From NCBI GenBank assembly GCA_020445415.1, contig JAGRGP010000065.1, forward strand, positions 1-64,000: 64,000 nt of DNA. Direction: 5' to 3'. Under the pieces are notes generated by a model, which searched no databases, was not told where the DNA came from, and saw only the letters and a program-made list of their open reading frames with translations. Below, piece after piece: positions 1-7,622 of the stretch. The DNA comes from Gammaproteobacteria bacterium. GTDB taxonomy: Bacteria > Pseudomonadota > Gammaproteobacteria > Chromatiales > Chromatiaceae. The position numbers were made by a program, and so were the translations under genes. Every line of letters starts with the position of its first letter. The first letter of the stretch is position 1.

Positions 1-1954
1 AGGGATCGCCGACGGTGTCGCCGGTAACCGAGGCCTTGTGGGCTTCCGAACCCTTGCCGCCATAATTACCGTCTTCAATATACTTTTTGGCATTATCCCA
101 GGCACCACCGCCGGCGGTCATGGAGATGGCAACGAATAGGCCGGTAACGATGGTGCCAATAAGCAGCCCACCTAACGCCTGAGGTCCGAGGATCAGACCA
201 ACCAACAGCGGCACCGCTATGGGTAGCAGCGAGGGTACGATCATCTCCTTGATGGCGCCCTTGGTAAGCATATCCACCGCCTTCGAATAATCCGGCTTTT
301 GTGTGCGATCCATAATGCCGGGCATCTCTTTGAACTGGCGGCGAACCTCGTTGACGATACCGGCAGCGGCGCGTCCTACCGCTTCCATTGCCAGGGCACC
401 AAACAGGAACGGGACCATGCCACCAATGAGCAGACCGATCAGCACCATATGGTTCGATAGGTCGAAGCTCATCGTGTGCCCCACATGGGCATTAAGGGCG
501 TGGGTGTAATCGGCAAACAGTACCAGTGCGGCTAACCCTGCCGAACCGATGGCATAACCCTTGGTTACCGCCTTGGTAGTATTGCCGACGGCGTCCAGGG
601 GATCGGTGATATTCCGAATTTTTTCATCGAGTTCCGCCATCTCCGCGATACCGCCGGCGTTGTCGGTAATAGGTCCGTAGGCATCGAGGGCCACGATGAT
701 GCCGCTCATAGACAACATGGAGGTGGCGGCGATGGCGATCCCGTATAGTCCAGCCAGGTCGTAGGCTCCCCACATTGCGGCACAAATTACCAGTACCGGT
801 AGCGCCGTCGATTTCATGGAGATACCGAGACCGGCGATGATATTGGTGGCGTGCCCGGTAGTAGAGGCAGCGGCGATAGCGCGCACCGGTTTGAACTGGG
901 TACCGGTATAGTACTCGGTGATAACCACCATGGCGGCGGTCAGAAACAGGCCGATTAGCGCCGATCCAAACAAAGCCATGGTGGGATCGCCGATACCTTC
1001 TATGCTGAGGTCACCCATCATGACCATCGTGACCACATAGTATGCTACGGCCGAAATGGCACCAGCTACCGCCAGTCCCTTGTAGAGGGCCGGCATCACA
1101 TTGGTGGCCGTATCGTGGATCTTAACGAAGTAGGTGCCGATAATGGAGGCAATGATAGAAACACCGCCCAAGACCAATGGATAAACGATTGCGGCATCTC
1201 CCGCACCCGTCAGTAGCAGACCACCCAATAGCATGGTTGCGACCACGGTGACGGCATAGGTTTCGAAGAGGTCCGCGGCCATGCCCGCGCAGTCGCCCAC
1301 ATTGTCGCCCACGTTGTCCGCGATGACGGCGGGGTTACGCGGGTCATCTTCGGGTATTCCTGCCTCCACCTTACCTACCAGGTCAGCGCCCACGTCGGCG
1401 CCCTTGGTGAAAATACCACCACCGAGTCGTGCGAAGATTGAGATGAGTGAGCCACCGAAGGCAAGACCTACCAGAGCATGCAGTGCATCGGCATTACTTA
1501 CGCCGCCCAAGGTCAGGGCGCCAAAATAGCCGGCTACACCAAGCAGACCAAGGCCCACCACCAGCATGCCGGTGATGGCGCCGCCCCGAAAGGCGATCTG
1601 TAAAGCGGCATTGATTCCGTTGTTGGCGGCTTGAGCAGTGCGTAGATTGGAGCGCACCGAGATGTTCATGCCGATGTATCCGGCCGCACCGGAGAGGATT
1701 GCACCAATCGCGAATCCGATGGCCGTGGTGGCGCCAAGCGCGTACCAGATAACAACCATCAAAGCCAAACCAACCACGCCGATGGTAAGGTATTGACGAT
1801 TAAGATAGGCCTTTGCACCTTCCTGCACCGCGCCAGCGATTTCTTTCATGCGCTCGTTTCCTTCTGGCTGTGCCAGAATCCACTTTACGGAAACGAAGCC
1901 GTAGACTACTGCGCCTATGGCGCAGATCAAGGCAAATATAAGCTCAACAGTCAT
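1..1954 (-). CDS. hppA: K+-independent H+-translocating pyrophosphatase (partial, C-terminus beyond window)
   Basis: Membrane-bound pyrophosphatase that couples PPi hydrolysis to H+ export. The reading frame opens at an ATG at 1954 ([13 protein letters not shown]) and runs off the left edge, so about 651 residues are visible and only the last part is missing. It is highly hydrophobic with many membrane segments. It carries the family's acidic substrate motif ([19 protein letters not shown], then [19 protein letters not shown]). The stretch [15 protein letters not shown] has Lys at residue 461; K+-dependent enzymes have Ala at this site, so this one should be K+-independent (established family rule). 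Transcription comes from pfp upstream across a 256-nt gap. That fits PPi made in biosynthesis being used either by the PPi-linked glycolytic enzyme or to pump protons. Confidence 0.97.
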
Positions 1955-2146
1955 CAAGACTTCTCCTCATGCTTATTGTTTAAAGATTCCATGCCGGTTC
2001 TGGCCCTTCATGACCCCCGGTCGCCCGGAGAATGAAGAAATAGGTTTCCCCTCAAGCCGTCGCGAATCGCCGCCCCAGGTCTGCTTGCCCATTCGGGCGA
2101 GCCGCCACGGATTGTACCTACTATGCGTTAACTCGTGGTCATTCAA

Positions 2147-2210: not shown

Positions 2211-3464
2211 TTACAGCTCGAACGCAGGCAGCTTCTTAGCCAACGGCTTGTTTTTTAGGGTGACATAGTCGGGCATACCGTCGACATATGGAGGATACTC
2301 TTCTCCCCGGATCAGTGGGTAGAGATAGTCCTTACATGCTGCGGTGATTCCATAGCCATCCGCGGTAATGAACTCCTTAGGCATCATTTTTTCTACGTTG
2401 GCCACTTCGGAAAGGGGAGCCTTGCCGACTTCCCAGACGTACGGGTTGCTGGATTTACGGACTACGGTGGGCATGATCGAGTTTTCACCAGCCAAGGCAT
2501 ACTCCACAGCGGCTTTGCCCATGGCATAAGCTTGCTCCACATCGCTTTTCGAGGCCAGATGACGGGCTGCCCGTTGCAGGTAGTCGGCGACCGCCCAGTG
2601 GAATTTGTATCCTAGCGCCTGTTTGATCATGTTTGCCACCACCGGGGCGGCGCCTCCCAGCTGGGCGTGTCCAAAGGCGTCCCGGGTACCTTGTTCCGCA
2701 AGAAACTTACCATCCGGCCAGTGCGCGCCTTCGGATACCACGACCGTTACGTAGCCGTGGGTTTCAACCATTTCCTGGCAACGGGCGATGAAGGTTTCTT
2801 GATTGAATGTCACCTCGGGGAAAAGGATGACGACCGGGATGCCTCGGTCTTCAGCCAAGCCACCCGCCGCCGCGATCCATCCCGCATGCCGCCCCATCAC
2901 TTCGATAACGAATACCTTCGTCGATGTCTTGGCCATGGAACGGACATCATAAGAGGCTTCCAGGGTGGAAACGGCAATGTACTTTGCTACGGAGCCGAAT
3001 CCCGGACAGTTGTCTGTAACCGGCAGATCGTTGTCCACGGTCTTGGGAACATGGATGGCCTGCACCGGGTAACCCATTTTCTCGGAGAGTTGGGATACCT
3101 TGTAGCAGGTATCCGCGGAGTCACCGCCGCCGTTGTAGAAGAAATAGCCGATATCATGAGCCTTAAAGACATCGATCAGCCGCTCATATTCCCGCTTGCT
3201 CTCCTCCAGACCTTTCAGTTTAAAGCGACAAGATCCAAACCCTCCCGACGGCGTATGCCGCAGAGCCGCGATAGCGGCATCGGATTCCTGGCTGGTGTCG
3301 ATCAGATCCTCGGTAAGCGCACCGATGATCCCGTTGCGGCCGGCAAACACGTTTCCAATCTGGTCGGTATGCTTACGGGCGGTTTCGATGACACCGCAAG
3401 CCGAGGCGTTGATTACCGCGGTGACGCCACCGGACTGTGCGTAAAAGGCGTTTTTCTTGCTCAT
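2211..3464 (-). CDS. pfp: pyrophosphate-dependent 6-phosphofructokinase
   Basis: Interconverts fructose 6-phosphate and fructose 1,6-bisphosphate using PPi/Pi, reversibly. The 417-residue protein belongs to the PfkA superfamily (MSKKNAFYAQSGGVTAVINAS start; PKTVDNDLP; MGRHAGWIAAAGGLAED). Two positions mark it as PPi-dependent rather than ATP-dependent. Asp occupies the second variable site of the nucleotide loop (NGGGDSADT, where ATP enzymes have Gly), and Lys occupies PKTVDND (ATP enzymes have PGTIDND). The ATG at 3464 follows a good AAGGA with 7-nt spacing. The gene lies between a small unknown gene and hppA, all leftward, so co-transcription is likely. In Methylococcus capsulatus, pfp and an H+-PPase gene are known to be co-transcribed. 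In autotrophs the reverse reaction can replace fructose-bisphosphatase and save PPi. Confidence 0.95.
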   Translation of the reverse strand: MSKKNAFYAQSGGVTAVINASACGVIETARKHTDQIGNVFAGRNGIIGALTEDLIDTSQESDAAIAALRHTPSGGFGSCRFKLKGLEESKREYERLIDVFKAHDIGYFFYNGGGDSADTCYKVSQLSEKMGYPVQAIHVPKTVDNDLPVTDNCPGFGSVAKYIAVSTLEASYDVRSMAKTSTKVFVIEVMGRHAGWIAAAGGLAEDRGIPVVILFPEVTFNQETFIARCQEMVETHGYVTVVVSEGAHWPDGKFLAEQGTRDAFGHAQLGGAAPVVANMIKQALGYKFHWAVADYLQRAARHLASKSDVEQAYAMGKAAVEYALAGENSIMPTVVRKSSNPYVWEVGKAPLSEVANVEKMMPKEFITADGYGITAACKDYLYPLIRGEEYPPYVDGMPDYVTLKNKPLAKKLPAFEL

Positions 3465-3530: not shown

Positions 3531-3875
3531 TTATAAATCCCCCCGCTCCTTGGCGCTATGGTCGGCCTGGGCCTGGAGCAGCGAGACAACGCATTCGGTA
3601 ATGTCCGTATATTCATTAACTCCGGTTCCATATTGTTGATAAGGACGGTAAAAAAATTGGCAGCGATACTTGCGTGTCCCGGTTTTGAATATAACAAAGT
3701 GGCAACCTTCCTTTTCCCAATACCAGACCGGGCAGGCAGTCAGATGGCGGTCCGAGGGATACAGCCTTATCTCGGAATCGGCTATCTGGATTTCCACATC
3801 CTCCCGATAGCGCTCCCGCAGGGTGGTCTTGATGACCCAAGTTTCGCTTTCGCTAATGTCTGGTACTTCTTGCAT
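3531..3875 (-). CDS. conserved-looking small protein upstream of pfp, function unknown
   Basis: I do not recognise this family. The ATG at 3875 gives 114 residues (MQEVPDISESETWVIKTTLRERY...). A GTG at 3908 would add 11 residues and has a plausible AGCAGG five nt upstream, so the start is open. The product has no signal peptide or membrane segment. It is rich in aromatic and charged residues (CPVWYWEKEGCHFVIFKTGTRKYRCQF) and has five cysteines without a metal-site spacing. It ends 66 nt before pfp in the same direction, so it is probably the first gene of a three-gene unit with pfp and hppA. A role in PPi metabolism is only guilt by association. Confidence 0.7.
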   Translation of the reverse strand: MQEVPDISESETWVIKTTLRERYREDVEIQIADSEIRLYPSDRHLTACPVWYWEKEGCHFVIFKTGTRKYRCQFFYRPYQQYGTGVNEYTDITECVVSLLQAQADHSAKERGDL

Positions 3876-3908
3876 CGCTATTCGATCTTCTGAAAAAACA
3901 GCCTGCAC

Positions 3909-4116: not shown

Positions 4117-5238
4117 ATGAGAATCGTCCTGATGGGTGGACCGGGCTCTGGGAAGGCGACCCAGGCAAAGCGGCTCAGCGCCCACTACGGTGTTCCGCTG
4201 GTACTGGTAACCGAGCTGGTCAAGGACGCTTCCCGGCAGGCGGGTGAGAGCGGTCTCAAGTTACGCGAGTTGATCGGACTCGGGCAGCAGCCAACCGACG
4301 AACTTATCCTGCTGATCCTGAAAGAGCGGCTGTTGCAGTTGGAGCCAGGTAGCGGCTTTCTGCTCGTTGATTATCCTCGAACTTTTGATCAGGCACAGAT
4401 ACTGGATCAGGCCCTGCAAGGATCGGGACTGAATATCGATCTTGTGGTGCAGCTGGTGGGTGACGAAGATCACTTTATGGAGCGGCTTGAAGGCCGCGAA
4501 GCCTGCAGCGTCTGTGGCGCAACCTACAACGCCTATTCCAGTCCCCCCAGGGTTGATGGAGTTTGCGATCTTTGCGGGGGGCGCATCCGCCGTTATACAG
4601 GCCAGAGTAGAGAAGCCATCTCTAGCAGAATGCGGTTGTATTCCCATCATTCCGCGCTGTTGGAGCCATACTATCGGCAGTCGGGGCGTCTGATCCAGGT
4701 GTCGGGAGACGGTGAGGTTGAAGCCGTATTTCGTGGGATATGCGAATCGATCGGGCAATTGCCCTTAAAGGGAGGGTCTGCCAGCGGAAATACTGGAACC
4801 GGAGTGATGGCGGGTGCTATCGAGAACGGTGCCAATGGCATGCCAGTTGGTTCACGAAATCCGCCATCAGTGGATAAGACCACCCAGAAGAAGCGGCCAA
4901 CGCCACGCCGGCTCGAGGGGGGCGGGGACCAGGAAGCACGGGGCAGGCGGGCAGCCCCGTCTACTGCGGCGGAAAAACGGAGACTTAAGAGCGAAGTAAA
5001 CAAAAAGCAGAGCGCGAAAGCGAGCCGGGCAACTGGTCGCGGGTTACCCGGTGGGAAAGTGGACGCTGAGGGCGAGTCTCGGAAAACGGCTACCGCCGGT
5101 AAAACCCCCAGCCGCCGGCCATCGATGAAAAAGGGAGGTGACGGAAAGCGCCCGCTGCAAACTGTTAAACAGATCGCCGAAAAAAAACAATCGGCCGCTA
5201 ATGGCAAACGGCTGGCCACAGGGAGAAAAACCTCTTGA
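4117..5238 (+). CDS. divergent adenylate-kinase-like protein with long basic C-terminal tail
   Basis: Residues 1 to about 215 have the fold signature of a long-form adenylate kinase: P-loop GGPGSGKATQ (7-16), YPRTFDQA (in place of GFPR..QA), and a zinc-type LID with cysteines at 130, 133, 150 and 153. Several catalytic or AMP-site features are altered. The STGDMLR segment reads VLVTELVKD, and the LID RxDD pair is replaced (RRYTGQSRE). Residues from about 215 to 373 form a low-complexity tail rich in Lys, Arg, Ala, Gly, Ser and Thr, like histone H1 or AlgP repeats, with no counterpart in normal Adk (about 215 aa). It is divergent from the pfp-hppA unit. It may interconvert adenylates next to PPi enzymes, but activity is doubtful. 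The tail could bind nucleic acid or polyphosphate (inference). Confidence 0.85.
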   Translation: MRIVLMGGPGSGKATQAKRLSAHYGVPLVLVTELVKDASRQAGESGLKLRELIGLGQQPTDELILLILKERLLQLEPGSGFLLVDYPRTFDQAQILDQALQGSGLNIDLVVQLVGDEDHFMERLEGREACSVCGATYNAYSSPPRVDGVCDLCGGRIRRYTGQSREAISSRMRLYSHHSALLEPYYRQSGRLIQVSGDGEVEAVFRGICESIGQLPLKGGSASGNTGTGVMAGAIENGANGMPVGSRNPPSVDKTTQKKRPTPRRLEGGGDQEARGRRAAPSTAAEKRRLKSEVNKKQSAKASRATGRGLPGGKVDAEGESRKTATAGKTPSRRPSMKKGGDGKRPLQTVKQIAEKKQSAANGKRLATGRKTS

Positions 5239-5422: not shown

Positions 5423-6799
5423 ATGTCGCTAAGTGTTTTCGAGCTGTTCAGGATCGGAATTGGGCCTTCCAGTTCCCATACCGTTGGTCCCATGCGGGCA
5501 GCCCGGCAGTTTGTCACCTGGCTCCAAGCGCAGGAAGCGCTGGACCGCTGCGCTGGGGTGAGGGCCGAGCTGTACGGCTCTCTCGGGGCCACCGGAAAGG
5601 GACACGGGAGTGACAAGGCGGTGCTGCTGGGCTTGGAGGGTGAATGCCCTGAATCGGTCGATGTGGATCAGATAGATGAGCGCTTGCAATCGATACGCGC
5701 CATGCAACGGTTGCGGTTGCTGGGCGTGCGGGATATCGATTTCCACGAGCAGCGAGATCTCATATTCCATCGCCGTCGGACCCTGCCCGGCCATAGCAAC
5801 GGCATGTGTTTTTTGGCCTTCGACCATGCTGGCAATGAGCTTGGCTCAAAGATCTATTACTCGGTGGGTGGAGGGTTTGTTGCCGACGAAGCGATGCTGG
5901 AATCTGACCGGCTGGCACCTCTGTCGAGACAGCTTCCCCATCCCTTTGCCAGTGGCAAAGAGCTTCTGGACCAGTGCCGGGCTAGCGGTTTAAGTATCAG
6001 TACTCTGATGCTAGAGAACGAGAAATGCCGACAAGGTGAGGGAGAGATCATTGAGGGGCTGCTCGCTGTTTGGGGTGTGATGTCCGCCTGTATTGACCGG
6101 GGGTGCGCCCGGGAGGGTATCCTGCCCGGGGGGATGAAAATCAAACGGCGCGCAGCACACCTCTACCGCACACTCCGTAGCGATTCCCAGACAGGTTTGT
6201 CGCCCATGGGGGCCATGGATTGGGTGGACCTCTATGCGCTGGCGGTTAATGAAGAGAATGCCGCCGGGGGGCGCGTTGTGACCGCTCCCACTAACGGGGC
6301 GGCGGGAATCATTCCCGCGGTCATCAAGTACTACCTTACGTTCTGTAATGGTGCGGATGACGATGGCGTGGTCCGTTTTTTACTGGCGGCGGGGGCGGTC
6401 GGTATACTTTACAAAATCAACGCCTCCATTTCCGGCGCGGAGGTGGGGTGCCAGGGGGAGGTGGGATCTGCCTGTTCGATGGCTGCCGCGGGCCTGACAG
6501 AAGCGCTGGGCGGGACACCTGAGCAGGTCGAGAATGCCGCGGAGATTGGCATGGAGCATAATTTGGGGCTCACCTGTGACCCGGTGGGCGGCTTGGTGCA
6601 GGTTCCCTGTATTGAGCGCAACGCGATGGCCGCCGTCAAGGCTATCAATGCGTCACGCATGGCGCTGCGTGGCGATGGCAGCCACTTCGTATCCTTGGAC
6701 AAGGTGATTAAAACCATGCGAGATACCGGCCGGGATATGAAGAGCAAGTACAAAGAAACCGCACGCGGCGGGCTGGCTGTCAATGTTGTGGAATGCTGA
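5423..6799 (+). CDS. sdaA: L-serine ammonia-lyase (Fe-S, single chain)
   Basis: Deaminates L-serine to pyruvate and ammonia. The 458-residue protein begins [24 protein letters not shown], the usual start of the beta domain, and has the alpha-domain cluster region with conserved cysteines in [10 protein letters not shown] and [15 protein letters not shown], which ligate the 4Fe-4S cluster in this family. The length matches the one-chain gammaproteobacterial type. The ATG at 5423 is preceded by GGGAG with 9-nt spacing. It stands 184 nt after the adk-like gene and 61 nt before an amidohydrolase in the same direction; the latter gap holds a stem-loop, so the two may be only partly coupled. Confidence 0.97.
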
Positions 6800-6803
6800 T
6801 GCT

Positions 6804-6835
6804 TGGCCGGTCAGCCGGTAACCGGCTAGTGGCCA
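6804..6835 (+). other. nested stem-loop downstream of sdaA
   Basis: An inner palindrome AGCCGGT-A-ACCGGCT (6813-6827) sits inside outer arms TGGCC (6804-6808) and GGCCA (6831-6835). It lies in the 61-nt gap between sdaA and the amidohydrolase gene. With no T-run it is more likely an mRNA-end stabiliser or attenuator than a classical terminator. Confidence 0.4.
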
Positions 6836-6860
6836 CCAGCACGGTGGCGGAGTAGGTTTA

Positions 6861-7622
6861 GTGACAAAAGTCTTCGATAGCCATTTTCATATTATCGACC
6901 ATCGTTTTCCCCTCGTGGCGAACCAGGGTTATCTGCCAGGAGAGTTCAGCTGTGAGGATTATCTGCGGCGTACCGCCGGTATCGGGTTGATCGGAGGGGC
7001 GGTCGTATCGGGGTCATTTCAGGCATTCGACCAAGGATATCTACGAAGTGCGTTGGAGGTCCTCGGGGATAGGTTTGTCGGCGTGACTCAGTTGCCTTAT
7101 ACAGTCACTGACGAAGAGATCCTGTCATTGGATGACGCCGGAGTACGGGCCTTGCGATTTAATCTGAGGCGCGGGGGGGCGGAAGATAGCCGCCATCTAG
7201 AGCGTATGGCAAGGCGTGTCTACGAGTTGGTAGGTTGGCATGTGGAACTCTACGTGGATTCATCCCGGCTGGGCGACTTGTTTCCGTTACTGCGCCGCTT
7301 GCCGCTGCTCGTTATCGACCACCTTGGACTGTCCGCTGTTGGTTGGCATGACCTTCTGCGGTTGGTGGAACAGGGCGTACAGGTCAAAGCAACCGGTTTT
7401 GGCAGAGTGGATTTTTCTATCCCCGGGGCCCTGACCCAAATCCATGGAATCAACCCCGGGGCACTGATGTTTGGGACCGATCTTCCATCCACTCGTGCGC
7501 CCAGACCTTACCAAGACAGTGATCTGCAGTTGCTGATCGAGACGCTAGGCGTAGCGGGTGGGGAGGCAGTACTCTATCAAAACGCCTTGGAGCGCTACCG
7601 TCCCCGAGTGCGCCCGGATTGA
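6861..7622 (+). CDS. amidohydrolase-family TIM-barrel hydrolase
   Basis: A 253-residue protein of the amidohydrolase-2 superfamily (metal-dependent hydrolases of the 2-pyrone-4,6-dicarboxylate lactonase/decarboxylase type). The N-terminal metal motif is DSHFHIID, and the late Asp lies in MFGTDLPS, as expected for the barrel strands. Substrate cannot be told from sequence. The start is a GTG at 6861 with GGAG about 8 nt upstream; no ATG would keep the HxH motif. It ends 16 nt before the convergent trpC gene. It may be co-transcribed with sdaA but has no obvious pathway link. Confidence 0.8.
   Translation: MTKVFDSHFHIIDHRFPLVANQGYLPGEFSCEDYLRRTAGIGLIGGAVVSGSFQAFDQGYLRSALEVLGDRFVGVTQLPYTVTDEEILSLDDAGVRALRFNLRRGGAEDSRHLERMARRVYELVGWHVELYVDSSRLGDLFPLLRRLPLLVIDHLGLSAVGWHDLLRLVEQGVQVKATGFGRVDFSIPGALTQIHGINPGALMFGTDLPSTRAPRPYQDSDLQLLIETLGVAGGEAVLYQNALERYRPRVRPD

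What the first reader, a model, noticed from the sequence alone, without database searches (positions are those of the whole stretch)
4117..5238. Adenylate-kinase-like protein with altered catalytic motifs and a 150-residue histone-like tail
The P-loop and the Cys4 LID are kept, but the STGDMLR AMP-site segment and the RxDD LID motif are replaced, and a Lys/Arg/Ala-rich tail of about 158 residues is added. Normal Adk is about 215 residues. The tail resembles H1/AlgP-like DNA- or polyphosphate-binding sequence. This could be a sensor or moonlighting protein rather than a housekeeping kinase.
Basis: partly seen in the sequence, partly recalled or inferred. Interest (0 to 1): 0.72.

Follow-up and report, generated by a model that had tools for sequence, protein, structure and literature searches.

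The report
Tailed, altered second adenylate kinase
This bacterium carries a normal adenylate kinase plus a second, altered copy with a long positively charged tail that probably no longer does the enzyme's usual job; it belongs to a conserved but apparently undescribed family of tailed copies in sulfur-oxidizer-type bacteria, although this particular copy looks half-decayed.

Summary
Window 4117-5238 (+) encodes a 373-aa adenylate-kinase (Adk) paralog. It keeps the P-loop and Cys4 LID. STGDMLR is replaced by LVTELVK, D84 by V, RxDD by YTGQ, and a 158-residue basic tail is added.

The genome also has a canonical 217-aa adk beside htpG, so this is not the housekeeping enzyme. Its orthologs form a syntenic gammaproteobacterial family divergent from the PPi-phosphofructokinase gene and a 125-aa gene (H+-pyrophosphatase beyond), nearly all with Lys/Ala-rich tails of about 35-440 residues.

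Where the tailed copy is the only Adk, all catalytic residues are canonical (12/12 resolvable genomes). Where a second Adk exists, most have lost AMP/Mg-site residues but kept the P-loop, LID arginines and zinc site. Degenerate copies in four genera still evolve under purifying selection (dN/dS mostly 0.02-0.13), so the family looks like functional pseudo-adenylate kinases with histone-H1-like tails, not junk.

The window's own copy is the exception. It has one of the longest branches, among the most reduced motifs, a tail whose basicity is no higher than base composition predicts, and both congeners lack the gene. It may be decaying. The tail's ligand and the function are untested.

The parts
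4117..5238 (+). adk2: 373-aa tailed adenylate-kinase paralog
   Evidence: ORF; Pfam ADK + ADK_lid; orthologs L004-L014, L113-L153
4135..4161 (+). P-loop GGPGSGKAT (residues 7-15), lysine K13 kept
   Evidence: alignment A1, residue table
4204..4224 (+). AMP-site segment LVTELVK in place of STGDMLR (T31V, D33E, R36K)
4366..4380 (+). VDYPR in place of DGFPR: D84V, G85D; R88 kept
4504..4575 (+). Cys4 (zinc-type) LID, C130/C133/C150/C153
   Evidence: Cys invariant in 23/23 degenerate and 25/25 canonical relatives
4594..4605 (+). YTGQ in place of the RxDD LID motif (R156Y, D158G, D159Q in E. coli numbering)
4762..5235 (+). 158-residue basic low-complexity tail (residues 216-373)
   Evidence: no tandem repeat left in the DNA
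3531..3908 (-). conserved 125-aa gene, no Pfam/NCBIfam match, divergent neighbour of adk2
2211..3464 (-). pfp, PPi-dependent phosphofructokinase
   Evidence: NF010675 637 bits; adjacent to adk2 orthologs
2..1957 (-). hppA, membrane pyrophosphatase, cut by the window edge
   Evidence: PF03030 6e-257, NF001951

Best explanation
adk2 is the non-housekeeping member of an Adk pair. An ancestral, catalytically canonical Adk with a Cys4 LID and an H1-like Lys/Ala-rich tail sits divergent from the 125-aa gene / pfp / hppA. In lineages that also have another adk (here the htpG-linked one), the tailed copy is freed from the essential AMP + ATP reaction. It loses the AMP phosphate and Mg positions (T31, D33, R36, D84) but keeps the P-loop, LID arginines and zinc site. 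The most likely working form is an ATP/ADP-binding pseudo-adenylate kinase whose closing LID reports nucleotide state, tethered by its tail to a polyanion (DNA/nucleoid or polyphosphate). Shown here: the second adk, the residue losses, synteny, tails, purifying selection in four related genera, and the predicted Adk fold. Inferred: loss of Adk activity, retained ATP binding, tail ligand, regulatory role. In this genome the copy has gone further (R156 and both LID Asp lost, tail weakly basic) and may be in decline.
For: Second canonical adk at G000:C8 (L001). 12 of 12 tailed sole Adks with htpG present in the assembly are fully canonical, while 31 of 46 tailed copies beside another Adk have 2 or more replaced catalytic residues. 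The three apparently sole degenerate cases (G071, G103, G147) lack htpG or have it truncated at a contig end, so the htpG-linked adk is probably missing from those assemblies. Retention in 23 degenerate representatives: K13 22, Cys4 23, R119 21, R123 19, R156 19, R167 20, against T31 5, D33 4, R36 7, D84 5. R36, R123 and R156 are key ligand-binding residues whose mutation strongly reduces activity (PMC11582565). dN/dS of degenerate cores mostly 0.02-0.13 in genera g29, g61, g62 and 0.08-0.19 in g8, versus 0-0.10 for canonical adk. Tail K/R excess z = 3-8 in most relatives. AlgP/PhaF-type tails bind DNA or associate with polyP granules (PMC9239181). AlphaFold model with Adk fold, pLDDT 89.
Against: The degenerate state needs only about 3 changes on the tree, so the Fisher p (2e-5) is inflated by kinship, and independent pairs are too few to test it. 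Several tailed copies beside a second Adk stay canonical (tubeworm-symbiont genus g20, G052, G149, G152, G156, G163). No relative is close enough to measure selection on the window copy itself. Its tail is not more basic than its base composition predicts, and both congeners lack the gene, G002 with a clean locus.
Confidence: 0.55

Rival explanations
1. In this genus adk2 is a decaying, effectively functionless relic: redundant with the htpG-linked adk and on its way to loss.
For: Long end branch (1.29, against 0.28-0.6 for its nearest relatives); 7 replaced catalytic residues; tail K/R z = 1.1; both congeners lack an adk2 match and in G002 the gene is absent with trpC directly beside the 125-aa gene; pfp is kept nearly everywhere without adk2.
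Against: Open 373-codon frame; Cys4, P-loop, R88, Q92, R119, R123 and R167 intact; pN 0.36-0.40 versus saturated pS 0.68-0.83 against relatives; core codon-position GC like neighbouring genes.
Confidence: 0.3
2. It is still an active nucleoside monophosphate kinase with shifted substrate (for example another NMP, or a changed phosphoryl donor/acceptor).
For: R88, Q92, K13, R119, R123 and R167 kept; R36K and D33E are conservative; the AMP-site motif is conserved within genera but differs between them; an E. coli D84A structure contains two ADP described as arising from Ap4A hydrolysis (PDB 8rj9, title); linkage to PPi metabolism genes.
Against: Loss of R156 and both LID Asp in the window copy; D84 lost in 18/23 representatives; one relative even has K13R.
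Confidence: 0.12
3. Ordinary housekeeping Adk with a harmless junk tail.
For: Adk fold and family match; sole tailed Adks elsewhere must be active.
Against: A canonical adk exists in this genome; below the TIGR01351 cut-off; catalytic residues lost.
Confidence: 0.03

Closest known systems
Bacterial adenylate kinase, Cys4-LID type (TIGR01351, NF001380; PDB 5g3y, 1zin)
   Same: Fold, P-loop, zinc-type LID, 35-38% identity to solved structures
   Different: AMP/Mg-site and RxDD residues replaced; scores below curated cut-offs; C-terminal tail added
NF010381 / PRK13808 tailed adenylate kinase (335-position NCBI model)
   Same: Adk model long enough to include a C-terminal extension; the window protein aligns over nearly the whole model (1-371 to 1-326/335)
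   Different: 90 bits against a cut-off of 426; the better match for the core is the Cys4 type
AlgP / PhaF histone-H1-like tails (Pseudomonas)
   Same: Lys/Ala-rich disordered tail of about 150 residues (PMC9239181), like the relatives' tails
   Different: Attached to an Adk domain; no KPAA repeats in the window tail; binding untested
Pseudoenzymes / pseudokinases in general (PMC10211241, PMC12599244; seen, not read)
   Same: Fold and ATP-site residues kept, catalytic residues lost
   Different: An Adk-family pseudoenzyme linked to pfp; none was found described in the held library

Membership tests
Adenylate kinase (active enzyme, TIGR01351) | score over curated cut-off | tested here: not met
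   137.3 vs 168 bits
Adenylate kinase (active enzyme, TIGR01351) | P-loop lysine and Adk fold | tested here: met
   K13 kept; AlphaFold model matches Adk structures, E 4.5e-23
Adenylate kinase (active enzyme, TIGR01351) | AMP/Mg-site T31, R36, D84 and LID R156, D158/D159 | tested here: not met
   V, K, V, Y, G, Q
Adenylate kinase (active enzyme, TIGR01351) | AMP + ATP phosphotransfer activity | not testable with these tools
   needs enzyme assay
ADK superfamily (Pfam PF00406 + PF05191 LID) | score over gathering cut-offs | tested here: met
   91.5 (cut-off 26.8) and 42.7 (cut-off 26.6) bits
NF010381 tailed adenylate kinase | score over cut-off | tested here: not met
   90.6 vs 426 bits
pfp-linked tailed Adk family (defined here) | divergent from 125-aa gene / pfp, Cys4 LID, basic tail | tested here: met
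pfp-linked tailed Adk family (defined here) | tail K/R content beyond base composition | tested here: not met
   z = 1.1; relatives mostly 3-8
Histone-H1-like / AlgP-type polyanion binder | DNA or polyP binding of the tail | not testable with these tools
   composition only

The most novel reading that the evidence does not exclude
A conserved family of pseudo-adenylate kinases in Gammaproteobacteria in which an AMP-site-dead, ATP-binding Adk domain with a histone-H1-like tail acts as an energy-state-dependent nucleoid or polyphosphate-granule organizer tied to pyrophosphate-based glycolysis.
Probability: 0.2. Interest if true: 0.8.

Novelty: new variant of a known kind. Interest (0 to 1): 0.5.

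Why it matters
Adenylate kinase is a textbook essential enzyme. A family showing stepwise change from a tailed, sole, canonical Adk to a selectively maintained pseudoenzyme beside a second Adk gives a natural series for studying how an enzyme becomes a non-enzyme. If the tails bind DNA or polyphosphate, it would link adenylate energy state to nucleoid or polyP organization in bacteria that run PPi-dependent glycolysis.

Tried and rejected
Sole-Adk idea: rejected, second adk found. Strict rule that every tailed copy beside a second Adk degenerates: rejected, several stay canonical. Statistical proof of the sole/canonical link: Fisher gives 2e-5, but phylogenetically independent pairs are too few. 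Tail as selected basic domain in the window copy: not shown. Pseudogene relic at the sibling locus: none in G002 or G068. Co-loss with pfp: no, pfp is in 115/117 family genomes although many lack adk2. Closer relatives for a selection test: only three genomes held in the genus, none other with adk2; best named relative 45% identical. Literature searches found no description of tailed pseudo-Adk or of an adk-pfp link.

Full report
OBSERVATION. The ORF at 4117-5238 + is real and encodes 373 aa. Pfam finds ADK (residues 5-189) and the ADK LID (127-156), nothing in the tail. Best solved relatives are Cys4-LID adenylate kinases such as 5g3y (38% identity by Foldseek; phmmer 1.4e-48). AlphaFold2 on a 15-sequence alignment gives mean pLDDT 89 and an Adk fold. 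In E. coli numbering the window protein has T31V, D33E, R36K, D84V, G85D, R156Y, D158G and D159Q; K13, R88, Q92, R119, R123, R167 and the four LID cysteines are kept. R36, R123 and R156 are described as key for ligand binding, any mutation substantially reducing activity (PMC11582565). Two of these three are changed.

SECOND ADK. The genome has one other Adk, a canonical 217-aa protein downstream of htpG, passing the NCBI Adk cut-offs that the window protein fails. So the window copy is not the housekeeping enzyme.

LOCUS AND FAMILY. The local order is hppA - pfp - 125-aa gene (all minus strand), then divergent adk2, then sdaA, an amidohydrolase gene and trpC. Orthologs were found across the window's family and in other gammaproteobacterial families, nearly always next to pfp, usually with the 125-aa gene and, where the flank is long enough, often hppA. 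Both other genomes held for the genus lack an adk2 match, and in G002 and the more distant G068 the 125-aa gene is followed directly by trpC with no adk2 relic.

TAILS. Tails in the compared set run from 34 to 438 residues, mostly AKKA/KKAA-type, with pI about 9.5-12 in those calculated. In most relatives K/R content greatly exceeds that of base-shuffled tails (z = 3-8). In the window copy it does not (z = 1.1), nor in G017 (where the repeat runs into other reading frames) or G095 (z = 1.3). The tail is present in fully canonical copies too, so it is independent of motif loss and probably older.

MOTIF LOSS AND A SECOND ADK. Twelve genomes have the tailed copy as the only Adk while htpG is present in the assembly; all twelve keep every catalytic residue scored. 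Of 46 tailed copies that coexist with another Adk, 31 have lost two or more. Three apparently sole degenerate copies come from assemblies in which htpG, the neighbour of the canonical adk, is missing or truncated at a contig end. Caution: degeneracy needs only about three changes on the tree, so the association (Fisher 2e-5) is not phylogenetically independent; sign tests had too few pairs. The window copy falls in a weakly resolved group with G012, G017, G059, G074, G095 and G101, in which most share D84V and G017 has lost only that residue.

WHAT IS KEPT. In 23 degenerate representatives the P-loop lysine (22), LID cysteines (23), R119 (21), R123 (19), R156 (19), R167 (20) and Q92 (22) persist, whereas T31 (5), D33 (4), R36 (7) and D84 (5) do not. 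This asymmetry is what an ATP-side-intact, AMP/Mg-site-defective protein would show. That residues on one side persist is a sequence fact; that ATP still binds is inference.

SELECTION. Nei-Gojobori dN/dS between congeneric degenerate copies is 0.02-0.13 in genera g29, g61 and g62 and 0.08-0.19 in g8, compared with 0-0.10 for canonical adk in the same genera. dS is saturated for some pairs, so values are rough, but these copies are clearly not neutral. No such pair exists for the window copy; against its nearest relatives pN is 0.36-0.40 with saturated pS, and its end branch (1.29) is at least twice those of its near neighbours. It is either specialised further or decaying.

INTERPRETATION. 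Best reading: a pfp-linked tailed Adk family, active where it is the sole Adk, becoming a maintained pseudo-adenylate kinase in lineages with another Adk; plausibly an ATP/ADP-responsive protein anchored by its tail to DNA or polyphosphate, by analogy with AlgP and PhaF (PMC9239181). The tail ligand and regulatory role are unproven. The window copy itself may be a late, weakening member.

NOVELTY. NCBI holds an Adk model of 335 positions (NF010381), so C-terminally extended Adks are not new; the degenerate, syntenic, selectively maintained family was not found described in the literature held, which does not include most subscription journals.

Noticed in passing
window 3531-3908 (-): A 125-aa protein, 40-81% identical in relatives, lies between pfp and adk2, persists when adk2 is lost, and has no Pfam or NCBIfam match.
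   Followed up: partly
L004 (G017) tail: The tail repeat of this ortholog runs from AKKA-type into RRRRP and then GEEG-type repeats, consistent with a frameshift inside the repeat.
   Followed up: no
G063:C14, G097:C1, G120:C1, G135:C4: Two short adk-like genes lie within about 1 kb of each other; those in G063, G097 and G120 are in addition to the tailed copy.
   Followed up: no
window 5423-7622: sdaA and an amidohydrolase gene lie between adk2 and trpC here but not in related loci G002 and G101, suggesting insertion in this lineage.
   Followed up: partly
L010 (G011): Tailed Adk with the P-loop lysine replaced by arginine (GSGRGAQ), a likely dead nucleotide site.
   Followed up: no
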